Assembly (NCBI GenBank): GCA_017520105.1
Contig: JAFWRL010000086.1
Span: forward strand, 1-17,583
From: Fibrobacter sp.
GTDB lineage: Bacteria; Fibrobacterota; Fibrobacteria; Fibrobacterales; Fibrobacteraceae
Length of the DNA: 17,583 nucleotides
Reading direction: 5' to 3'
Made by a program: the position numbers and the translations under genes. A model generated the notes under the pieces. That model saw nothing but the letters and a program-made list of their open reading frames with translations, had not been told where the DNA came from and ran no database searches. The stretch's first letter is position 1. Each line of letters starts with the position of its first letter. Shown in pieces: positions 2,352 to 12,319 of this stretch.

Positions 2352-3251
2352 CTACTCGATATAGCCTTCTTGGTCATAACACTTGTGATGTTTCTTGATT
2401 AGGCTCACAAGCGGTTGTACCCTTGGGTCGGTCACCTTCATATTCTCGAATTTCAGAATCTGATTATCGTAACGTTCGCGGCTACCGTTTTCAATGCGTT
2501 TTTCAGCATCGTTCGGAACAAAGAAAGCGGAGCGCTCCTCAAGTTTGGCATAAAACTCGGTAAGATAGATATTGATGCCAGCAAGATCAAAGTCACCGAA
2601 ATGCACATAATAATTGCCGTTTCCACAGAGCCAGCGAATCAAATCACCAGACTGCGGGTAACGTGCTACAAAAAGCAACGGCTGAGGCTTTGTAAAAGGA
2701 ACAATTTGTTTGAAAAGTATTTTTTGCCGTCCGATGTAGCGGAAATTTTCCATATTTTCAATTCCCACAACAGTCACATTTTCAGGGATAAAGAAATTTT
2801 CATAGTCCGCAATGAAAACGTATGAACCATCAGGCGGATTCAAATCAAAATGTTTCCCGTTGAGACTCACTGGAATCGGTTCATAGCAGTTTACCAAGAA
2901 CCCCTTGCAACTACGGGAAGTTCGAATTTTTGAGTTGCCCGTTGATGCAGCCTGTTCTTTCCGCATGGCGAACGGCCTAATGCCGCTTTCCGCCCCCAAT
3001 AGCCTACGATACATCTCTTCGCTTTTTTCTAAATCTTTGAATGCATCATCACGCATGGCTAGATAAGCTCGTAAAGCATTTCCATTTGGTGCTTTGCAAA
3101 AAGAACCTCTTCCTTTTGGGAAAGAAATCAGCAAGCCTTCCTTCAGCAATTCGGCAAAAACAGCACCTTTACAGTCGCTCGCAGGGAGTTCACCTCCGTT
3201 GACAAGAACAATCAGTTTATTTAATAACACTGTTGTAATATTATACGCCAT
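2352..3251 (-). CDS. jetD: Wadjet JetD, DUF2220/Toprim nuclease subunit
   Basis: 299 residues. In Wadjet (known from the family) JetD is a topoisomerase VI/Spo11-like protein that cuts circular plasmid DNA after the SMC complex has extruded it. Seen here: an N-terminal winged-helix-like region (about 1-85), then a C-terminal Toprim domain with the glutamate motif GIENMENF (163-170, E165) and the metal-binding HFGDFDLAG (217-225, D220 and D222), and a C-terminal DQE close to the end, as is usual in this family. All expected catalytic acids are present. The ATG lies one base after the jetC stop (TAA-T-ATG), with AAGGA about 8 bases upstream inside jetC, so translation is probably coupled. It is short compared with roughly 380 residues for type I JetD, suggesting another Wadjet subtype; the subtype cannot be fixed by eye. 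Confidence 0.88.
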   Translation of the reverse strand: MAYNITTVLLNKLIVLVNGGELPASDCKGAVFAELLKEGLLISFPKGRGSFCKAPNGNALRAYLAMRDDAFKDLEKSEEMYRRLLGAESGIRPFAMRKEQAASTGNSKIRTSRSCKGFLVNCYEPIPVSLNGKHFDLNPPDGSYVFIADYENFFIPENVTVVGIENMENFRYIGRQKILFKQIVPFTKPQPLLFVARYPQSGDLIRWLCGNGNYYVHFGDFDLAGINIYLTEFYAKLEERSAFFVPNDAEKRIENGSRERYDNQILKFENMKVTDPRVQPLVSLIKKHHKCYDQEGYIE

Positions 3252-3252
3252 A

Positions 3253-6200
3253 TTACATTCCTTGAGTTCTTGTCATCAGCAGTCTTACCACGGTTTGTGA
3301 TTTTGCATTCTTTTCGAGCAAATACGTGTAGCGGTATTCCGATACGCTCTGCGTTGTAGGTGAACCATTCACCAAATAGATGTTTCTGCTATTCGCAAAT
3401 TTCAAAATGCCATTTGCATTTTTCGGGTGGAGTTTTCCGATTTCATCCATCATGCAGTGGAGCTTAAATTCGCCGAACTTGCGAGAAGCCTGCGTCTTGA
3501 AAACATTGATGAGCATGATGTTCACCATTGCTTTCACGAGTACATCTGTACCTTCGGAACCCACATTAGAAATTTTGTCAATCCATCCAGTATCGTTATC
3601 GTTTTCTTGTACGCGGAACTGCAAGCGGAATGCATCCGAAAGTTTTAACGTATTACGCGTCGGTTCGTCATTCAGTGACTTCACAAATTGCAAAAGCAAA
3701 TCAACCGCTCCGCGATTCGCACTTTCCGTATCGCCCATTGAGAACAAGTTTAATTCACCCAATGCATACTGATTTTCTGCATAGAATCTCTGCATCGCAA
3801 GCATCAAACGCATCAGCTTGTCATTCGATTCTTCGGTACGCAAAGCGATACTCTTGATTACGCCTGCAAAATTCTTTTCGACAAAATCGCGATTAATATT
3901 CAAAACAATTTTCTCGATTTCAGATTTTTGACGCGTAACATCGCCAACTTCTTTTGCAACGCGAGCTAAAATGTCGGAATAGCGACCGCTTGTACGCTTG
4001 CGATATTCCTCAATCTTTTCATTCAACATAAAGTCGCTCAAGTTGTCCGCAAAATCCATGAAATCGCTTTCGCTATTCAATTCCATCTTGAACTTGAACG
4101 TATTGCGTCTGGAAAAACGTCCCTTAAACTTGTTGATAGACATCTCAAGTTCCTTGCTACGCTTTTGAGCGTTCATCAGCGATTCCTTGAGTTCAGTCAA
4201 AATTTCAGTGCAAAGGAGTGCATTCGGTGTTTCGCCAACGCTCTTTACATTTTCGGGGCAGAAACTTGAAACGAAGAATTTATCCGTTTCTTCAACGGAC
4301 TCCTTCAACTTGCGTTCCGTTTCGCGGTTCTGCTGCAAAATTTTATTTTGTTCCGCTCGCTTCGCTTCAAGGCGTTCCTTGCGGGCATTAAACCTCTGTT
4401 GTAAATCGCTCAATCGGCTTTCTATATCACGTTTTTTATTTTTGAATTCGTCTTCATGGTCGAAGAATTCCTGCTTGTCGTATCGATAACGAGCGACCAA
4501 ATCGCGATTCTGTTCTATTTCGTTTAGCTGTTGCTGTACATTATCAATTTCCGCTTCGCATTCCTTCAAAACGCTGACATCGACATTCTTGTTTTTCAGT
4601 TCTTCGTCACGCTGTTGCAACAACAATTTACGCTCGTTTTCCGCTTCGTTCTTGCGTGTTTCAATTTCTGCATGAATCTGCACGCGGAAATCATTAAACG
4701 CATTTTGAAGCGATTCATTTTCTTGCTGTTTCGCTTTTTCGTTCGCTTTCAGTTCTCGATTTTTATCTGCGACAATTTTATTCTGCTGTTCCTCGGCATT
4801 CAACAGCTTTTCAGAGATTACACTCTGTTGCGACTGAATTTCATTCTTACGTTTTTCAATTTCCGCAGCATCATCGCGAATCCATTTTTCGCGTTCATTT
4901 TCCAAACGTTTACGCTTTATCGGAATCTGCACGAGTTCATTTTCGGCGTTCCTGATATTTTCCAAAAGCGGCTTAATCTTAGGGGCATACGAGCGTTCTA
5001 CCACCGAATTTTTCTTTTCAAGGGCATCCGACAATTCCGTCTGTTTTGACTTGTTGTCTTCAACGGACTTCAAAATTGCTTTTTTCTCGACCGCAATTTC
5101 TTCGGGCGTTCGCACACGAATCGGCAAATCTTCGAGATTGATTATCACGCCGAAAAGAGCGTCACCTTCTACAAGTTCCGGCGAAAGTTCCGTATTGTAC
5201 AGAACCGATTCCTCATCGACTACCTTGCCAATAGAATTTTCCCAACCCGGTTTATTCTGGCTAAGCCATTCATAAAGCGAACCCTTTTGCCGTTCCAGCA
5301 AATCGTCAAGGCTTTTGAGCTGAGCGACAAAGCCTCGATTTTCCGCAACCAAGGCATCATTCTCTTTTTCGTATTCAACGCGATTGCGTTCCAGCTCGGC
5401 ATCTCGTTGAGCAGAAAGTTTGTTCAACTCCGCTTGGCATACAGACTTCTGCACCTTCGTTTCACTTTCGTGAATATTCAATGATTTTAGTTGTTCATCG
5501 CATTCATTAATTTTATCTTTAAACGGATGTTCATACTGAAGCCTTAGCAGCTCCTTTTCGCAAGCGACACGATCTGCATTCAAGGCATTAATTGTATTTT
5601 TTACGCTTACCAGTTTTTCATCACACCGAGCAACAATCGCTTCTCGCATTTGTTCGTATTTTGCGAGCACCCGCTGCCGCTGTTCCAATAACTCCGCATT
5701 TTTATCGTTCAGGCGAATGTTCTGATTTTGCTTAAATTCTTCCAAAGCCCGCGAAACTTGTTTCAGCAAATTCTCAAACTTTTCGGCGACATCTTCATAT
5801 TCACGAGTCAGGAGGCGGCGACGTTCTTCCAATCGTTCTTTCTCGATTTTCAAGGAGCCTTCGCGTTCCTGTTTTTTCAGAATCTCATCAATATTCTTTG
5901 CTTGGTATTCCTGGAATTTATCGCGACACTTTTTCAAATTATCCCTAACAAGCGTCAAGTCCGCATTTAACCCATCGCGTTCCTTGTTAAACTTTTCACT
6001 TTCTTCACTAATCAGGCGAATCGTATCGTTCAAGGCTTCATTCGATTTTTCAATTTCAATCACAATCGACGGGAGTTGCTCTTTAGCCACGCGATAAGAA
6101 TAATTCAGTTGCTTGCCACAATCCTCGATATTCTTCTTGAGTCCCAAAAGCGAATGATAAATTTTAACAACGCGGTCGGCATCAAGCCGCGTCTCGCATT

Positions 6201-6909
6201 CGCCTCGCTTGTTCGTCGTGAACCAAAGCCCGATATCGTTATATTCCTGCTCGAACTCCGAAACTTGATGCCTGAAATATCCCAAGTCGATAAACGAACT
6301 TTCGCTATCCATCGACTGGATTATCGTTTCCTTGATAAAATCCGCATCGAGTTTAGAGTTGAGGAAAACATTCTGAATGCTTCGCGGAATGTTCTGGTAG
6401 CGGCTACTTTCCGCAATCGAAAACTTGAAAAATTCCTTCCGCATCACCGCCTGATGGTTGCCGTAAATAATGTCGCGGAACATTTCGTAGCGATCGACAA
6501 TCGGGCTCATATAGCAACCGTTCAACCGAGTGCGAACAGTCGCCATTTCAGCAGTCACTTCGCCATTATCGTCAATCAGCCATTCCTTTTTGTACGGCGA
6601 ATCGATAAAACGGAATACCGCACGACCATTCGATTTGCTTACCAACACGCAGAATGCCGACTCATCGCGTTCCACTTCATAGACAACATAAGAATTTGAC
6701 TGTTCAAAATAAAAATCGTCAAAAGACTTTTTCTCTTTTGGGATTCCAAGCTTTTGCTTGTCCGCATTGTAGAAAAAGAGAATTGCACGCAAAAGTGTAC
6801 TCTTGCCCACGCCCTGCGTACCAATCAAATGAACATTACCGTTCAGGCCAATTTCCGCATAACGCACATGAGCACTGTTGATAAAGACAATCTTGTTAAG
6901 GGATCTCAT
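3253..6909 (-). CDS. jetC: Wadjet JetC, SMC/MukB-like ATPase
   Basis: 1218 residues from the chosen ATG at 6909, which has a strong GGAGG upstream; an in-frame TTG 18 bases earlier would put that ribosome site inside the coding region. Walker A GTQGVGKST (30-38) sits near the N-terminus. Long charged coiled coils (about 275-540 and 605-880) flank a non-coil hinge-like stretch (about 545-600, with SLYEWLSQNKPGW). The C-terminal head has a signature-like NVGSEGTD (about 1115) and Walker B CMMDE (D1155, E1156). This is the head-coil-hinge-coil-head plan of SMC proteins. In Wadjet the JetABC complex extrudes loops of small circular DNA and hands them to JetD. The gene overlaps jetB by 14 bases and is followed at once by jetD, so one operon is very likely. 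It has no sign of frameshift or lost ATPase motif. Confidence 0.92.
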   Translation of the reverse strand: MRSLNKIVFINSAHVRYAEIGLNGNVHLIGTQGVGKSTLLRAILFFYNADKQKLGIPKEKKSFDDFYFEQSNSYVVYEVERDESAFCVLVSKSNGRAVFRFIDSPYKKEWLIDDNGEVTAEMATVRTRLNGCYMSPIVDRYEMFRDIIYGNHQAVMRKEFFKFSIAESSRYQNIPRSIQNVFLNSKLDADFIKETIIQSMDSESSFIDLGYFRHQVSEFEQEYNDIGLWFTTNKRGECETRLDADRVVKIYHSLLGLKKNIEDCGKQLNYSYRVAKEQLPSIVIEIEKSNEALNDTIRLISEESEKFNKERDGLNADLTLVRDNLKKCRDKFQEYQAKNIDEILKKQEREGSLKIEKERLEERRRLLTREYEDVAEKFENLLKQVSRALEEFKQNQNIRLNDKNAELLEQRQRVLAKYEQMREAIVARCDEKLVSVKNTINALNADRVACEKELLRLQYEHPFKDKINECDEQLKSLNIHESETKVQKSVCQAELNKLSAQRDAELERNRVEYEKENDALVAENRGFVAQLKSLDDLLERQKGSLYEWLSQNKPGWENSIGKVVDEESVLYNTELSPELVEGDALFGVIINLEDLPIRVRTPEEIAVEKKAILKSVEDNKSKQTELSDALEKKNSVVERSYAPKIKPLLENIRNAENELVQIPIKRKRLENEREKWIRDDAAEIEKRKNEIQSQQSVISEKLLNAEEQQNKIVADKNRELKANEKAKQQENESLQNAFNDFRVQIHAEIETRKNEAENERKLLLQQRDEELKNKNVDVSVLKECEAEIDNVQQQLNEIEQNRDLVARYRYDKQEFFDHEDEFKNKKRDIESRLSDLQQRFNARKERLEAKRAEQNKILQQNRETERKLKESVEETDKFFVSSFCPENVKSVGETPNALLCTEILTELKESLMNAQKRSKELEMSINKFKGRFSRRNTFKFKMELNSESDFMDFADNLSDFMLNEKIEEYRKRTSGRYSDILARVAKEVGDVTRQKSEIEKIVLNINRDFVEKNFAGVIKSIALRTEESNDKLMRLMLAMQRFYAENQYALGELNLFSMGDTESANRGAVDLLLQFVKSLNDEPTRNTLKLSDAFRLQFRVQENDNDTGWIDKISNVGSEGTDVLVKAMVNIMLINVFKTQASRKFGEFKLHCMMDEIGKLHPKNANGILKFANSRNIYLVNGSPTTQSVSEYRYTYLLEKNAKSQTVVRLLMTRTQGM

Positions 6910-7447
6910 TTTCCGCCCCCTCCACAATATTCAAACAATTCACCAATTCTTCGAGATAATGGAATGCAGATGTCACTTTGTACAATCCTTCCAAGTCGTT
7001 TTCCAGTTCCACAAAGCCCGCTTTCATCAAATCATCGGTCAACCTGTCGATTACATCTGCAAAAACTTTCTTGTCGGCATAAAGCTTGACCGCTTTATCC
7101 TTCAGTTCCATGTCGCATGAAATCCGTTCCAGAATTTTCGCTTTGGTAAAAACGAATCCTGAGCCGAACGCAGAATTGAAAGTTTTCAAAAAATCCAGAC
7201 GGTCAATCCAGTCACAAAAACGCAAGAGCTTGTCAACCGCATTCACCCTCTGCTCATGCCGCGAAAAGTAAAAATACCCGTTACCACTCTCCAGCACAAA
7301 GCCGATACCTTCGTAATATTCGCGGTAGCTTTCAAAATCATCTTCAATCTGGTCGAAATATGCACGGTTCGCCTGCGAAACGCTGTTCATCGAAATGAAC
7401 GAGCCCTTGCTCAAAATGTCAAAAATTTCCTTGGAGTATTTCAGCAT
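6896..7447 (-). CDS. jetB: Wadjet JetB, MukE/DUF4194-like kleisin partner
   Basis: 183 residues from ATG 7447, chosen because GGGAGG lies four bases upstream. An alternative in-frame ATG at 7459 overlaps the stop of the preceding ATPase gene as TAATG but has only a weak ribosome site. The product is a small soluble, helix-rich acidic protein with alternating hydrophobic and charged residues, fitting tandem winged-helix domains. No catalytic motif is seen. The assignment rests mainly on size and position directly before the SMC gene, as for mukE/mksE/jetB, plus the overall look of the sequence. In the complex it would bind the kleisin JetA and the DNA. It overlaps jetC by 14 bases (ATGAGATCCCTTAA), indicating coupled translation and matched stoichiometry. 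Confidence 0.78.
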   Translation of the reverse strand: MLKYSKEIFDILSKGSFISMNSVSQANRAYFDQIEDDFESYREYYEGIGFVLESGNGYFYFSRHEQRVNAVDKLLRFCDWIDRLDFLKTFNSAFGSGFVFTKAKILERISCDMELKDKAVKLYADKKVFADVIDRLTDDLMKAGFVELENDLEGLYKVTSAFHYLEELVNCLNIVEGAENEIP

Positions 7448-7458
7448 AAAACCTCCCA

Positions 7459-8823
7459 TTAAAGACACCAAGTCATATAAGGCGGAATTTTCAAAACATC
7501 GCCATCGACTTGCAATGATTTTGGATGTATTATGATACTCCTGCCAACTCGCTTTTTAAATTTGTCCTTAAATTTGCCGAGTGAATTTGTGGTATAATTC
7601 TTTGAAGATTTAACTTCTACAGGAAAGACCTTGAAATTCGTCTTGCTTTCATTGGATAGCAAAAAATCAATTTCTATGGAATTGCGGTGTGCCGAAGCAT
7701 CGTATTCCGTATAAAAAAACAATTGCCGCCCCTTAGCACGAATCATCTGCGCAATAACATTTTCATAAAGCATTCCCTCATTCAGCGAAAGTTTGCCGTT
7801 CATAATAGCTTTGTAAAGTTGATTCGAAGCAATTTCATTTTCGCTAAAAGCAAGGCTCACCAATAGCCCCGTATCGCCCATGTAACATTTGACTGAAGAT
7901 TCATTTTTGTTGAGAGCAAAACCAACATTCGGGTCATTACATTTATAACACAAATTACAAATCATGGAGTCGTCAAGCCAAAAGAACGGTTCGTCGTACT
8001 TGGAGAATGTTGCTGCACCTGAATCATCAATTTCAGAAAGCACAATTTTTTTTTCATGCGAAGAAAGACTGCCGGGGATGTTTTCAAATACTGCAGAAAC
8101 TTTTGAACTATACCGTTTAGCCGCTTTTTTAATATCGTCACGATAAAGGTCCAAAATTTTTCTTTTTTCCTTGTCGCTCTTAGAAAAATCACGATCGTTT
8201 TCCATATAAGAAACAATGCTCTTAGGCATACCGCCCACCAAGATGTATTCTCTAAAAAGATGCATCGCACGCTTGTGGAAATGATCTTCCAACGGAACTT
8301 TATCCGTAAAACATTTTGCAATATACTCAAGGAGGATATTTTCACCCAAGGCCGCAGCAAATTCTTCAAAATCGCAAGGATGCATTTTCAGCTTTTCCTC
8401 TTCCGAGGGAAGAGTTATACTTTGCACATTTTCCTTGATAGAAATCAGCGACCCCGTTTCGAGGAAATCGTACCGACCATCTGCAACGAGATATTTTATC
8501 GCCTCGCGAGCCTTCGGAAATTTTTGGATTTCATCAAAAATGATTAGCGACTCGCGCCTATGCAGAGGGGTATTGTATTCCAAAGAAAGAGTTTGGAAAA
8601 AAACATCCAGATTGTTCAGATTCGTATCGAAGTTTTCGAGAATCTTGCGTGAAACCTTGTTGAAATCGACTAGAATATACGTTTTATATTCGCGTTCTCC
8701 AAAACGCTTCGCTATCGTGGATTTGCCAATCCGTCTGGCACCTTCGATAAGCAAGGCACTTTTCCCTTGGGACTCATTTTTCCAAGCCCTTAGACGATCA
8801 TACGCTTTTCTTTGGATTTCCAT
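7459..8823 (-). CDS. AAA+ ATPase with C-terminal DUF4143 (PD-(D/E)XK-like) domain, inside the Wadjet operon
   Basis: 454 residues from ATG 8823 (GAGG seven bases upstream; a TTG one codon earlier is less likely). The N-terminal AAA_14 module has Walker A GARRIGKST (28-36) and Walker B SLIIFDEIQ (D97, E98). The C-terminal DUF4143 region has GMLYEN (E354 or nearby), EIDFLL (D386) and PVEVKSS (E403, K405), the E...D...ExK spacing of a PD-(D/E)XK nuclease fold, so the nuclease-like site looks complete. The function of this large family is poorly known; its members are multicopy in many anaerobes and often lie near defence or toxin loci. It sits between jetA and jetB, in the same direction; its TAA shares a base with a possible jetB ATG. 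A private promoter region with three repeats lies upstream. Either a functional accessory of this Wadjet or an inserted selfish or regulatory gene; cannot be decided from sequence. Confidence 0.85.
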   Translation of the reverse strand: MEIQRKAYDRLRAWKNESQGKSALLIEGARRIGKSTIAKRFGEREYKTYILVDFNKVSRKILENFDTNLNNLDVFFQTLSLEYNTPLHRRESLIIFDEIQKFPKAREAIKYLVADGRYDFLETGSLISIKENVQSITLPSEEEKLKMHPCDFEEFAAALGENILLEYIAKCFTDKVPLEDHFHKRAMHLFREYILVGGMPKSIVSYMENDRDFSKSDKEKRKILDLYRDDIKKAAKRYSSKVSAVFENIPGSLSSHEKKIVLSEIDDSGAATFSKYDEPFFWLDDSMICNLCYKCNDPNVGFALNKNESSVKCYMGDTGLLVSLAFSENEIASNQLYKAIMNGKLSLNEGMLYENVIAQMIRAKGRQLFFYTEYDASAHRNSIEIDFLLSNESKTNFKVFPVEVKSSKNYTTNSLGKFKDKFKKRVGRSIIIHPKSLQVDGDVLKIPPYMTWCL

Positions 8824-8925
8824 CAATCGGCCTCATATTAACAGTGCGCAGAGTAAAATATACATAATTATTTAATAATACGCAAAGTATTTTTATAAAA
8901 AAAACTCGATAATACGCAGAGTAAA
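8824..8925 (-). promoter_or_regulatory. Promoter region with three 34-bp-spaced operator-like repeats
   Basis: The AT-rich gap between jetA and the ATPase gene. On the minus strand a 13-mer recurs three times: TTTACTCTGCGTA (8925-8913, starting right after the jetA stop), AATACTTTGCGTA (8891-8879) and TTTACTCTGCGCA (8857-8845), with starts exactly 34 bp apart. The core TACTCTGCGTA is a partial dyad (TAC-C-G-GTA outer bases symmetric). A candidate promoter TTGCGT-17 bp-TATATT (about 8885-8858) has its -35 inside the middle repeat and the last repeat just after the -10, so a bound protein would block transcription. Autoregulation by the ATPase or a linked regulator is inference. Confidence 0.55.
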
Positions 8926-10119
8926 CTATTTCGCATATATCAGCGGATATTCGTACCCATACGCTTCTTCGTACTTGTCCGTAATTTCAAATTCGTCCGA
9001 GAACTGCGATGCAAGCTGGCAAAAGAGCACCAGTTTTCCTTCCAAATCAATTTCGTAGGGATAACTGTAATTCATGACATAGTAAAACAAATCCGTACTC
9101 GTCGCCATGAATCCGTTTTTCATCTCGGTCTGATCGACCATCGGGATGACGATATTCTGTGCGGCAATTTCACTTTCGTCAAGCGGGTCTGCCAATTTTT
9201 TTCGAAGGTTGTTGCAGTTCTGCTTTCGGCCACGCACTTCACGCAATACAGAGAGTCCGTCGTCGCTTCCTCTCAGCCAATCGAGCGATACCTTGATTCT
9301 GTAGCCCACATTCGGTTCCATCCAAACAGGGTTTCGACTCGCAAGAACGTTCGTAACATCAGTATTCGTTTCGAGCACTTGCTGGTCGCGGAAATATTTC
9401 ACCAAGCGAATCTTTTTCAATAGTTCGCTTTGGTAATCAATCAAGTTCAGATATTCGATAATCTGCTTTTCGATTTCTATTAAGTTGTGCGAAGACTCGT
9501 TCAAGTCATACCGCAAATCATCAACCACAATTCGCAGATCCGCATCCATCGCAATTTTAAAAAATGCAGCCTGATTGTCTATCACTTTTTCCGCTTCAAT
9601 TATCTGCAACTTGATACCGTCGCGCTTTTCATCGAGATGCTTGAGTTTCGCCTTTTTGATTTTGTAATTTGGTTCGTTCTTGTAAGTGTTATCGACATTA
9701 CGCTTCAAGTCAATGACGTTACGCTTTGTATTGAGTGCAATGTTTTTCAAGCTTCGACGCACTTCGCGCAAGTAATTGTACTTTTGCGATTCATTCGTTT
9801 CTTGCAAGTAATATTCGATAGTTTCGTTCAGATGGTCAATATTCGCCTTGACGCTTTCGACATTGATTTCTTCGTTGACTTCAAGAACCTCTTCGAAGAA
9901 CTTGAGATAAACATCTTCAAGTTCCAAAAAATTTCCGTTGTCACGAATGATGCCATAATCCACCAAATACTGAATACGCGACATTTTGTAATCGACAAGT
10001 GGCTCCGCCAGATCCATGCGAAACGAGAGCGTTTTTCGCTTCGCAAACATTTCTTTTAGCAAAGCCTTCTCGCGAGAAAGAGCCTGAATGAGTTCATCGA
10101 TGGAGCGAAAATTATTCAT
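8926..10119 (-). CDS. jetA: Wadjet JetA, MukF/kleisin-like subunit
   Basis: 397 residues from ATG 10119 (MNNFRSIDEL). The open frame extends 46 codons further upstream, but that stretch crosses a strong terminator and is rich in Cys, Phe and Arg, unlike the rest, so it is non-coding. An N-terminal winged-helix-like region (about 1-80, ending GIIRDNGNFLELED) is followed by a long helical bundle and coiled coil (about 90-260) and a C-terminal globular part, the MukF/JetA plan. The kleisin closes the SMC ring and contacts JetB. No clear Shine-Dalgarno is seen; a TATAAT lies 10 bases before the ATG, so the mRNA may be nearly leaderless. Assignment is supported by context (jetB, jetC and jetD follow) more than by any signature motif. 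It is separated from jetB by the ATPase gene. Confidence 0.77.
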   Translation of the reverse strand: MNNFRSIDELIQALSREKALLKEMFAKRKTLSFRMDLAEPLVDYKMSRIQYLVDYGIIRDNGNFLELEDVYLKFFEEVLEVNEEINVESVKANIDHLNETIEYYLQETNESQKYNYLREVRRSLKNIALNTKRNVIDLKRNVDNTYKNEPNYKIKKAKLKHLDEKRDGIKLQIIEAEKVIDNQAAFFKIAMDADLRIVVDDLRYDLNESSHNLIEIEKQIIEYLNLIDYQSELLKKIRLVKYFRDQQVLETNTDVTNVLASRNPVWMEPNVGYRIKVSLDWLRGSDDGLSVLREVRGRKQNCNNLRKKLADPLDESEIAAQNIVIPMVDQTEMKNGFMATSTDLFYYVMNYSYPYEIDLEGKLVLFCQLASQFSDEFEITDKYEEAYGYEYPLIYAK

Positions 10120-10220: not shown

Positions 10221-11285
10221 TTACTCCACTTTCAGCTTGGACATGCTTTTTGCACATATCCCCATCGTTGAAACATTATGCAAGAAGGCTGACGTTGTTG
10301 GCGAGAGGATTCCGAGAAAACCGCCTACAAGCAAGCTCGTATTGAAAACAACTATAAAGCGGTAATTTTCAGAGATGCGCTTCATCAGCTTCTGACTCAA
10401 AAGACGCAATTCCACGAGGTCTTCGAGATTTTCGCGACGGAGCGTCACATCGGCAGTTTCGCGGGCAATATCACTGGCATCGCTCATAGCGACAGAAACG
10501 TTTGCCGTAGCCAAAGCAGGCGCATCATTGATGCCGTCTCCCACCATTATCACGCGCTTGCCTTCGGACTTCATTTGTTCCACATAACGATGTTTGTCTT
10601 CGGGCAGGACTTGGGCAAAGAACGTATCAATCCCTAAACGTTCCGCCACGCGTTCTGCCGCATTTTTGCTATCGCCCGTAATCATCACCACATTCTTGAT
10701 GCCACTTTCACGCAACCTGCGTATGGCAACAGCCGCTTCTTCGCGAGGCGGGTCGCTAATGCACAAGGCGCCGGCAAGTTCACCACCGATGCCAAGGTAA
10801 ATCACAGACGCAGCCCCCGCTTCTTTATCGATGATGCGCTGGTCCTCTTCGGACGCAATCACCTTTTCGTCTTCGATGACAAAATGCTTGCTGCCGATGA
10901 CTGCTCGTTTCTCGTCAAGCGCCGTTGCAATGCCATGCGCCACAATGTACTTGACATCGGCATGTTCTTCTTCGTGAGCAATTCCGCGTTCAAGCGCCGC
11001 TTTCACAATCGCACGTGCCATGCTATGCGGGAAATGTTCCTCGATGCATGCCGCAATTTTCAAGATTTCGTCTTCGTTGCGACCGCCGAACGGAATAATC
11101 TTTTCAAGTCGCGGCTCCGCCTTCGTGAGCGTTCCTGTCTTGTCAAATACAATCGTATCAGCAAGCGCAAGTTCTTCCAAGTACTTGCCACCTTTCACCG
11201 TCATGTCCATATCCGCGGCTTCACGCAATGCAGAAATCACGGAAATCGGAGTCGAGAGTTTTATCGCACAAGAGTAATCCACCAT
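10221..11285 (-). CDS. Metal-translocating P1B-type ATPase, C-terminal part (frameshifted)
   Basis: 354 residues, starting at the ATG that overlaps the stop of the N-terminal half (TGATG); no ribosome site is evident. It begins inside a membrane helix with MVDYSCAIKLSTP, the place where P1B pumps usually carry CPC or a similar metal-site motif; here it is SCA. Phosphorylation motif DKTGTLT (48-54), P1B HP-like EEHFPHSMA (about 83-91), TGDS (about 203) and hinge GDGINDAP (249-256) are all intact, followed by the last two helices. Together with the 11285-12319 frame this makes one normal-length pump that would move a transition metal out of the cytoplasm. Since no active pump can work without both halves, it is either a frameshift (true or a sequence error) or a two-polypeptide pump. 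Confidence 0.85.
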   Translation of the reverse strand: MVDYSCAIKLSTPISVISALREAADMDMTVKGGKYLEELALADTIVFDKTGTLTKAEPRLEKIIPFGGRNEDEILKIAACIEEHFPHSMARAIVKAALERGIAHEEEHADVKYIVAHGIATALDEKRAVIGSKHFVIEDEKVIASEEDQRIIDKEAGAASVIYLGIGGELAGALCISDPPREEAAVAIRRLRESGIKNVVMITGDSKNAAERVAERLGIDTFFAQVLPEDKHRYVEQMKSEGKRVIMVGDGINDAPALATANVSVAMSDASDIARETADVTLRRENLEDLVELRLLSQKLMKRISENYRFIVVFNTSLLVGGFLGILSPTTSAFLHNVSTMGICAKSMSKLKVE

Positions 11286-12319
11286 CAAGATGGAACCGCA
11301 CGTGAGATGTTCTGCGTAAACAAAAGCGTAAGCCCAAAGCCGAGGAAACTGAACGGCACGATGCTATCGGCCAAATGTTCCGCACGGCTCTGCACGCTCG
11401 CCTTCAAGTCTTCGCTACGGTCAATCAGTTCCACAATCTTCTGGATTTTCGTATTGCTGTTCACCGCCTGAACCTCAACAACAATTGAGCCTTCTTCAAG
11501 AACGGTCCCCGCAAAAACGATTCGACCAGCAGTCTTCATCACCGCCTTGGATTCGCCCGTCATCGTCGATTCGTTTACGAACGCTTCTCCTTCAACAACG
11601 CGGCCATCCACAGGAATCATGCTACCAGAGCGCACACGCACCAAATCACCTACCTGGACGCTCTTAAGTTCGACCAAAGTATCTACGCCATCTTTCACGA
11701 CCCAAACTTTATCGACTTTTACGGCGAGGCTCCCTGTAAGCGCCGTACGCGTACGCGCCTTGGTATAATCTTCCAGCAAGCCAGAGACACCCAAAAGGAA
11801 CATGACCGTCCCGGCAGATTCGTAATTGCGGCGCAACAGCGAAGTTCCAATTGCAGCACCGTCGAGTACATCGACCGTGAGATTTCCACTCGCAAGCGTC
11901 GAAACGCCACGCGCCACATAACGCAACCCGCGAACCACCGTAATCGCCGTACGAATCGGGAGCGGAACAAACCAGCGCAGCAAATAGCGCCTAGCAATCA
12001 TCATCGCAAGGTTGTTTTTAAACTCGTCGTCCAAAGCTTGCAACTGGTATTCCGTTTCGCCATCACATTCCGGCAGCGATTTGGGATTCAGCGATTTTGC
12101 AAATTCAAGAATCTGGCTACGACTTGCACCGTAATCGCCGTTCAGCGGCTCATATTCAAGCAATAGCCCGCCATTCTCGCTGTGCACTACAACACTTTTT
12201 ACGCAAGGCACGCCAACACAAGCCTTGTGAACACGCGCTTCATACTCTCGATCAAAAGCATACGCTCCGGCACGCAAACGAAGGCGACCAGGTCTATCAT
12301 AGACAATTCGATATTGCAT
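11285..12319 (-). CDS. Metal-translocating P1B-type ATPase, N-terminal part (frameshifted)
   Basis: 344 residues. Residues 1-75 form an HMA-like domain with DRPGRLRLR but no CxxC metal motif, typical of the HMA_2-type subgroup. Membrane helices follow (about 113-185), then the actuator domain with VPDG-like IPVDGR and the dephosphorylation loop TGES (254-257), then a helix pair ending LFTQNISRAVPS-stop. Homologous pumps would continue from ...SRA straight into SILMVDYSCAIK, which is present in the frame one base away. Adding one T in the GGTTCC run at about 11292-11297 would restore R-A-V-S-I-L-M-V-D-Y. Start ATG 12319 has no strong ribosome site. The small DUF6110 gene upstream is its usual partner. 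Confidence 0.85.
   Translation of the reverse strand: MQYRIVYDRPGRLRLRAGAYAFDREYEARVHKACVGVPCVKSVVVHSENGGLLLEYEPLNGDYGASRSQILEFAKSLNPKSLPECDGETEYQLQALDDEFKNNLAMMIARRYLLRWFVPLPIRTAITVVRGLRYVARGVSTLASGNLTVDVLDGAAIGTSLLRRNYESAGTVMFLLGVSGLLEDYTKARTRTALTGSLAVKVDKVWVVKDGVDTLVELKSVQVGDLVRVRSGSMIPVDGRVVEGEAFVNESTMTGESKAVMKTAGRIVFAGTVLEEGSIVVEVQAVNSNTKIQKIVELIDRSEDLKASVQSRAEHLADSIVPFSFLGFGLTLLFTQNISRAVPS

What the first reader, a model, noticed from the sequence alone, without database searches (positions are those of the whole stretch)
2352..10119. Wadjet operon with an extra AAA+/DUF4143 ATPase between jetA and jetB
Order is jetA - ATPase - jetB - jetC - jetD; known Wadjet operons (established knowledge) have the four jet genes contiguous. 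The ATPase keeps Walker A, Walker B and the E...D...ExK of a PD-(D/E)XK fold, is in the same direction, and its stop overlaps a possible jetB ATG (TAATG), so jetB-C-D translation may depend on it. It could be a fifth, accessory or regulatory component (for example a second nuclease or a safety switch), or a selfish gene that has landed in the operon. JetC ATPase motifs and JetD Toprim acids are intact, so the core system looks live.
Basis: partly seen in the sequence, partly recalled or inferred. Interest (0 to 1): 0.75.

Follow-up and report, generated by a model that had tools for sequence, protein, structure and literature searches.

The report
Embedded defence ATPase with private repeats
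A stand-alone ATPase-nuclease gene, already listed as a candidate phage-defence gene, sits inside a plasmid-defence operon as an exchangeable passenger, and genes of its family mostly carry an evenly spaced set of DNA repeats at their start that appears to match their own protein.

Summary
The order jetA-ATPase-jetB-jetC-jetD is real, and the four jet genes look intact. The ATPase is not a conserved fifth Wadjet part. Of eight Fibrobacterota genomes with a full-length JetC, none has it between jetA and jetB: four have the genes contiguous and four hold other genes there (PADLOC PDC-S02 or PDC-S05). The window's ATPase is itself PDC-S01, one of the 'embedded' single-gene defence candidates, so the embedding is a new case of a known kind.

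What I did not find described is an array in front of the ATPase: three direct repeats exactly 34 bp apart. Of 130 upstream regions in the family (window included), 122 have their best self-match at 32-35 bp (controls 118 of 827). Seven plasmid-borne relatives from several phyla show 32-33 bp. Repeat sequences differ between paralogues and follow the protein, not the host. The four sisters without the ATPase keep a two-copy array of the same motif before jetB, most simply a footprint of a lost ATPase.

Best reading: PDC-S01 is a self-contained passenger that probably controls its own promoter through a private repeat operator; it has been lost or replaced at this junction and may have put jetBCD under that promoter. 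Binding, repression and defence are untested.

The parts
8926..10119 (-). jetA: probable MukF-type kleisin
   Evidence: No Pfam or PADLOC family; AF2 model pLDDT 78, pTM 0.43; the five best Foldseek hits are MukBEF/JetABCD/MukF chains, best 9gm7_C E 1.5e-3, none below 1e-3; homologue found in 83 of 89 jet loci
8842..8924 (-). Array of three direct repeats (ATACTYTGCGYAYTR-like) at 8842-8856, 8876-8890 and 8910-8924, period exactly 34 bp
   Evidence: (best self-lag 34, 0 of 60 shuffles); same arrangement before homologous ATPases
8857..8885 (-). Possible core promoter inside the array: TTGCGT-17 bp-TATATT
   Evidence: Read directly; NOT flagged by the sigma-70 scan; TATATT lies in the last 80 bp before 44 of 52 Fibrobacter ATPase genes with arrays against 12 of 60 control ORFs
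7459..8823 (-). Embedded ATPase-nuclease gene: AAA_14 + DUF4143 (PADLOC PDC-S01), 454 aa
6896..7447 (-). jetB: MksE family
   Evidence: PF21980 1e-37; homologue in 89 of 89 loci; ATG at 7447
3253..6909 (-). jetC: SMC-like ATPase, DUF3584
   Evidence: PF12128 2e-64; P-loop and D1155-E1156 invariant in 13 sequences
2352..3251 (-). jetD: DUF7281, Toprim-like residues E165...D220xD222
   Evidence: PF23947 2e-6; residues invariant in 26 sequences; the Toprim reading rests on recall plus the MksG E236/D279 passages of PMC10123090

Best explanation
The extra gene is a PDC-S01-type single-gene defence candidate embedded in a divergent Wadjet operon as a self-contained, exchangeable passenger. Shown: it occupies a junction that has no gene in most operons examined and is filled with unrelated genes in sister genomes; it comes with a three-copy, 34-bp-period repeat array; relatives in several bacterial phyla have arrays of nearly the same period, and the repeat sequence tracks the protein. 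Inferred: the ATPase, or a complex containing it, binds its own repeats and represses or times its own transcription. The C-terminal PD-(D/E)XK part would act on some nucleic acid during infection. Because the array sits upstream of jetB-C-D, the insertion probably gave these genes an extra promoter, a stretch of which persists before jetB in four sister genomes after the ATPase was lost.
For: Passenger: 0 of 8 Fibrobacterota operons have it there; 4 contiguous, 4 with other genes; 70 of 71 non-Fibrobacter operons without a gene there; genes at the junction elsewhere are PDC-S02 1e-132, PDC-S05 2e-101 and PDC-S22 5e-116; family matched in 67 of 80 genomes of the genus; proteins 71-73% identical bear the names Treponema, Lachnospiraceae, Clostridia and Tyzzerella. 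Footprint: (array of the same motif before jetB in four sister genomes, 78-79% identity over 55-64 nt; all 7 exact motif hits in 80 genomes lie at these junctions, at one intact ATPase or at two decayed ATPase genes). Array general. Array cognate: best-motif partner is one of the five nearest proteins in 52 of 89, 300 permutations: mean 5.0, maximum 14; across host groups 46 of 89, mean 11.5, maximum 24; Mantel 0.185, 0 of 999; 4 of 5 hits in a 3.5-Mb genome are the gene's own array. Selection on the family: dN/dS 0.027-0.043 in six unsaturated homologue pairs (the window's own five pairs were saturated).
Against: No binding, repression or defence experiment exists here. The sigma-70 scan does not flag the promoter inside the array. 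The part that would read DNA is not settled: in the 45-member clade the partial correlation is best for the PD-(D/E)XK part (0.235, 0 of 499), next for the AAA+ part (0.145, 3 of 499), and weak for the winged-helix-like part (0.085, 29 of 499). Mantel correlations are modest, motif similarity does not rise evenly with protein identity (mean 0.37 at 35-40% but 0.30 at 40-50%), and shared ancestry of gene and promoter explains part of the signal. 8 of 130 upstream regions do not have the period as best lag, and 118 of 827 control regions do by chance, though only 7 of them strongly. One further strain may carry this ATPase with a Wadjet JetC: P0125 and P0008 both report a longest contig of 6068 bases, so the pairing may not be unique to one strain.
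Confidence: 0.72

Rival explanations
1. The ATPase is an accessory or regulatory fifth component of this Wadjet lineage, needed for or modulating JetABCD.
For: Same direction, tight spacing to jetB, intact motifs; possible second strain with ATPase and JetC (equal contig lengths only).
Against: Absent from the junction in all 8 Fibrobacterota operons with full-length JetC and in 71 others. The junction accepts unrelated genes. In the genus, matches to the family are far more widespread than full-length JetC.
Confidence: 0.08
2. A guard: the ATPase is held inactive while Wadjet works and is released when a phage or plasmid inhibits it, as recalled for PrrC inside a type I restriction operon.
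For: Nested position; fold near CED-4 and NLR-type switches.
Against: No Wadjet-specific partner is evident; relatives have their own arrays and mostly occur in genomes without a full-length JetC of this type.
Confidence: 0.1
3. A selfish homing-type gene: the PD-(D/E)XK part cuts alleles without it, the repeat array is its recognition site, and arrays without the ATPase are empty sites.
For: Patchy distribution, cross-phylum relatives at 70% or more identity by source names; turnover at one junction; motif tracks the PD-(D/E)XK part best.
Against: All 7 exact motif hits in 80 genomes lie at ATPases, ATPase remnants or this junction. Arrays sit just before the gene in nearly all relatives examined.
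Confidence: 0.12
4. The repeats are operators of an unrelated host regulator, and the ATPase merely sits downstream.
For: The position would suit any repressor; RptR binds three direct repeats in a restriction-island promoter (PMC12255303, abstract and passages).
Against: Repeats differ between paralogues in one genome (G196: 18 arrays, mean motif similarity 0.36) and follow the protein across host groups, which a shared host regulator would not produce.
Confidence: 0.1

Closest known systems
PDC-S01 (PADLOC phage defence candidate; AAA_14 + DUF4143)
   Same: Same family by profile; embedded inside another defence operon, as PDCs were found ('guilt-by-embedding', passages of PMC12988326)
   Different: Host operon here is a divergent Wadjet. 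The paper searches made (one search was too loose to count) listed no paper that, by its listing, concerns a cognate 32-35-bp repeat array; the defining preprint was not held
Wadjet / MksBEFG / JetABCD
   Same: jetA-B-C-D order, MksE-family JetB, SMC-like JetC, Toprim-like JetD, probable MukF-like JetA
   Different: So diverged that PADLOC gives only weak JetC1 (1.7e-6) and JetD1 (0.058) hits; a gene is embedded between jetA and jetB
RptR-controlled restriction/DarTG2 island in E. coli (PMC12255303)
   Same: Defence genes embedded in another defence operon; three direct repeats overlapping the promoter; repression shown there
   Different: There a separate 9-kDa repressor and 9-bp repeats; here no separate regulator gene in the ~100-bp gap, 32-35-bp period, repeats differ between paralogues
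PABY2304 and SSO1545, archaeal AAA+ ATPases
   Different: About 15% identity; their function is not established here

Membership tests
Wadjet (JetABCD / MksBEFG) | Four-gene order kleisin, KITE, SMC ATPase, Toprim nuclease | tested here: met
   Order A-B-C-D in the window and in relatives, with the JetA identity below as the weak point
Wadjet (JetABCD / MksBEFG) | JetA is a MukF-type kleisin | tested here: inconclusive
Wadjet (JetABCD / MksBEFG) | JetB of the MksE/KITE family | tested here: met
   PF21980 MksE 1e-37; NCBIfam MksE below cut-off
Wadjet (JetABCD / MksBEFG) | JetC has intact ABC-type ATPase motifs | tested here: met
   Invariant P-loop and D1155-E1156 in 13 sequences
Wadjet (JetABCD / MksBEFG) | JetD Toprim acidic residues | tested here: met
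   E165, D220, D222 invariant in 26 sequences; assigned by motif from recall, no Toprim profile hit
Wadjet (JetABCD / MksBEFG) | Clears plasmids | not testable with these tools
   Needs an experiment
PDC-S01 | Matches the PADLOC PDC-S01 profiles over its length | tested here: met
   PDLC04792 8.8e-98, residues 4-455
PDC-S01 | Gene embedded inside a known defence operon | tested here: met
   Between jetA and jetB
PDC-S01 | Antiviral activity | not testable with these tools
Direct-repeat autoregulated defence promoter (RptR-like logic) | Direct repeats overlapping the gene's own promoter | tested here: inconclusive
   Repeats clear; TATATT between repeats, but promoter not flagged by the scan
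Direct-repeat autoregulated defence promoter (RptR-like logic) | The gene product binds the repeats | not testable with these tools
   Only indirect: motif tracks protein
RptR regulator family | Separate small regulator gene and TAGCTA sites | tested here: not met
   Only about 100 bp between jetA and the ATPase; the repeat sequence is different

The most novel reading that the evidence does not exclude
PDC-S01 proteins, reported as the fourth most common defence (candidate) across prokaryotes, may be self-addressed ATPase-nucleases. Each gene would carry a private direct-repeat operator with about three helical turns per repeat, co-evolving with its own protein. This forms an open-ended set of insulated, non-cross-reacting switches that lets many paralogues coexist in one genome. 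Embedding one in Wadjet would rewire jetBCD onto such a switch.
Probability: 0.45. Interest if true: 0.8.

Novelty: new variant of a known kind. Interest (0 to 1): 0.62.

Why it matters
PDC-S01 is very abundant (fourth most common defence across all prokaryotes in PMC12988326; the most frequent individual locus in rumen genomes in PMC13356809; passages), and the passages I saw give it a domain make-up but no mechanism. A cognate repeat array would make a binding partner and a regulatory test immediately available: each gene names its own DNA target. The Wadjet case shows embedded genes coming and going at one operon junction and leaving a piece of promoter region behind.

Tried and rejected
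Fifth Wadjet component: rejected on distribution. Translation coupling through TAATG as the main point: not required, since the start that relatives share is 12 nt further on with its own ribosome-site-like sequence. Homing site: no free-standing arrays in 80 genomes at exact match; a looser scan was not run. The winged-helix part as the repeat reader: an early sliding-window result pointed there and to 361-445, but the clade-restricted partial test favoured the PD-(D/E)XK part, so it stays open. Solved-structure sequence searches gave nothing usable for the ATPase, JetA, JetD or JetC. NCBIfam gave no hit over its cut-off for the nine proteins scanned. A viral-contig scan with the single ATPase sequence, which reaches close relatives only, confirmed none. 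MukF chains were not above unrelated helical chains.

Dropped rows; 21 of 167 genomes matched; the 13 without a full-length JetC (short or partial hits, one at a contig edge in G124) were not followed. L050 (N-terminus missing) was left out of L032-L061; 29 loci and the window remain; 142 sequences went in, the window among them; 12 were dropped (5 without the N-terminus matched, 7 without a tblastn hit); L069-L072 had been left out beforehand because one search found no hit in them, and the pattern-hit loci L062-L068 were not used. The 130 kept contain a few genes twice; the non-redundant figures are, where two upstreams with N letters were left out; 117 of 130 had a usable array (score at least 13, two or more copies), 91 of them non-redundant; one search dropped two with N letters, leaving 89. 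These 89 were chosen for having an array, so they say nothing on frequency. Host groups are by source: Fibrobacter-genus genomes against genomes behind the JetC loci, one of which is titled Lentisphaeria (L178) and not all of whose titles name a phylum. One search kept the best 80 of 451 confirmed loci; 3 of the 80 repeat loci already held. One search used 7 of the 60 plasmid records found (40 listed), picked for taxonomic spread; for Collinsella the match start, not the annotated start, was used.
Full report
OBSERVATION. The window carries, on the minus strand, jetA (10119-8926), an ATPase gene (8823-7459), jetB (7447-6896), jetC (6909-3253) and jetD (3251-2352). Profiles: ATPase = AAA_14 + DUF4143; JetB = MksE; JetC = DUF3584; JetD = DUF7281; JetA none. 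PADLOC assigns the ATPase to PDC-S01 (9e-98) and gives only weak JetC1 and JetD1 hits, so this is a divergent Wadjet-type operon. JetA's model is of low confidence (pTM 0.43); its five best Foldseek hits are MukBEF, JetABCD and MukF chains, though none below E 1e-3, and in the second aligner unrelated helical proteins score as high. The operon has lower GC (about 0.39-0.44) than the stretches next to it (about 0.49-0.52). Motif residues are invariant in the alignments of the ATPase, JetC and JetD.

THE JUNCTION IN RELATIVES. The window's own assembly is not held. Of 167 genomes of the phylum searched with JetC, 21 matched and 8 have a full-length JetC; I fetched those eight. In four (G140, G145, G141, G147) jetA and jetB are adjacent; in four of the nearest genus (G001, G135, G127, G105) 1.67-1.83 kb lies between them. 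None has the ATPase there. G001, G135 and G127 carry a YhcG/DUF1016 gene (the G001 copy scanned: PDC-S02, 1e-132) beside an ORF6N remnant; G105 carries an intact ORF6N gene (PDC-S05, 2e-101). The neighbouring chromosomal genes are the same in these four and the window. Window and G001/G135/G127 match at 98.6% over 71 nt at the jetA end and 100% over 38-64 nt at the jetB end (G105: 87% and 94%), while the insert differs.

OUTSIDE FIBROBACTER. A scan of the GTDB species collection kept 80 of 451 confirmed JetC loci; three repeat loci already held. Of the other 77, 71 have both jetA and jetB. A gap above 150 bp occurs in two: L166 holds a KilA-N gene (PDC-S22, 5e-116), and L154 is a jetA split in two ORFs. 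The jetB-jetC junction is open in 2 of 77 (L132 and L133, near-identical SLFN_AlbA_2/HATPase genes); the jetC-jetD junction in 1 of 76 (L169, split jetD). DUF4143 relatives lie in the flanks, not embedded, at L109, L158, L172 and L029. Embedding in this operon type is therefore occasional and uses different single genes.

THE REPEAT ARRAY. Between jetA and the ATPase are three copies of an ATACTYTGCGYAYTR-like unit at 8842, 8876 and 8910, exactly 34 bp apart. A search of 80 genomes of the genus found ATPase relatives in 67. In the first 30 upstream regions (29 loci and the window) the 33-35-bp self-match is reached by 0-2 of 60 shuffles, and 33-35 is the best lag, ties included, in 29; L059 prefers 29. 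The enlarged set of 130 (window included) has its best lag at 32-35 in 122, 103 of them with at least 14 of 16 letters equal; 3 have as strong a match at another lag. Of 827 control ORFs 118 have their best lag there, 7 strongly, and 33 are strong at another lag. After removing redundancy the figures are 92 of 100 (<85% identity), 46 of 50 (<60%) and 10 of 12 (<40%). Seven plasmid copies from Segatella, Fusobacterium, Collinsella, Ruminococcus, Acinetobacter, Vibrio and Criblamydia have best lags of 32-33 (Fusobacterium tied with 20); shuffles reach the score in 0 of 200 for five, 3 of 200 for Criblamydia and 4 of 200 for Ruminococcus. Arrays usually have three copies (76 of 117), spaced mostly 33, 34 or 32 bp.

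REPEATS FOLLOW THE PROTEIN. Repeat sequences differ between paralogues, also within one genome. In 89 non-redundant arrays the most similar array belongs to one of the five nearest proteins in 52 cases (300 permutations: mean 5.0, maximum 14). Restricted to the other host group it is 46 of 89 (mean 11.5, maximum 24). At equal protein identity, pairs across host groups are about as similar in motif as pairs within a group. The overall Mantel correlation is modest (0.185, 0 of 999), and the rise with identity is uneven. Which domain reads the repeat is open: sliding windows suggested residues about 226-325 and 361-445; in the 45-member clade the partial correlation is 0.235 for 361-453, 0.145 for 1-150, 0.121 for 316-360 and 0.085 for 236-316. 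One motif searched in its own 3.5-Mb genome with up to 3 mismatches hit its own array 4 times and one other place once.

FOOTPRINT. The window's motif, searched exactly in 80 genomes, hits seven places: the four sister Wadjet junctions just before jetB, one intact ATPase, and two decayed ATPase genes (a P-loop stretch fused to the last 52-53 codons) that keep their array. The sister arrays match the window's array at 78-79% over 55-64 nt and, by eye, also have two copies about 34 bp apart. The simplest history is that the common ancestor had the ATPase with its array, and that the ATPase was lost beside newer insertions in the sisters. I did not test this formally.

MECHANISM. The ATPase model (pLDDT 87) is closest to PABY2304, CED-4 and SSO1545, followed by NLRs and ORC/Cdc6 proteins. 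TATATT lies within 80 bp of the start in 44 of 52 Fibrobacter copies with arrays against 12 of 60 control ORFs; in the window TTGCGT-17-TATATT runs from copy 2 to the edge of the last copy before the gene, but the sigma-70 scan does not flag it. Together with motif-protein tracking this suggests autoregulation through a private operator; that is inference. Homologue pairs show dN/dS of 0.027-0.043 in six unsaturated comparisons, none of which includes the window gene, whose five comparisons were saturated (dN 0.106-0.266); the family is under strong purifying selection. The nucleic-acid target and antiviral role are unknown.

LITERATURE. PDCs come from 'guilt-by-embedding' (Payne et al. preprint, known to me only as cited in PMC12988326 and PMC12255303). 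PDC-S01 is called the fourth most common defence across all prokaryotes (passage, PMC12988326) and the most frequent individual locus in rumen genomes (passage, PMC13356809). Searches for Wadjet with DUF4143, DUF4143, AAA_14 with direct repeats, and PDC-S01 with repeat listed 0, 1, 1 and 2 papers; judged by listing, and for the last two by passages on other terms, none concerns such arrays, and the preprint itself was not available. RptR (PMC12255303, abstract and passages) is the nearest published analogue I saw of repeat-based control of an embedded defence island.

Noticed in passing
L024 about 6070-6173; L027 just upstream of 10475: The DUF1016 and ORF6N inserts both have a TGTCATAATATGACA-like palindrome upstream and a GC-rich inverted repeat just before the start codon, a different operator style from the ATPase arrays.
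   Followed up: no
L024-L026, jetA-jetB gap: The DUF1016 gene is preceded by an ORF6N remnant and followed by a weak second ORF6N tail match (tblastn E 0.05, blastn E 0.003), suggesting nested insertion of one candidate gene into another.
   Followed up: partly
L132 and L133, 8439-9983: A SLFN_AlbA_2/HATPase gene sits between jetB and jetC in two Bacteroidota genomes.
   Followed up: partly
G196 (genome of L144): 28 matches to the DUF4143 ATPase in one 3-Mb Bacteroidales genome, some of them fragments.
   Followed up: partly
L029:13255-14634: A 30% identical DUF4143 ATPase lies 0.8 kb beyond jetD, with repeat-like units (GTGCGGAAAAATGTA) around its start.
   Followed up: no
window 10221-12319: A P-type ATPase is encoded by two ORFs overlapping by 4 bases (11285-12319 and 10221-11288); the four sister genomes also show it as two adjacent stretches.
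   Followed up: no
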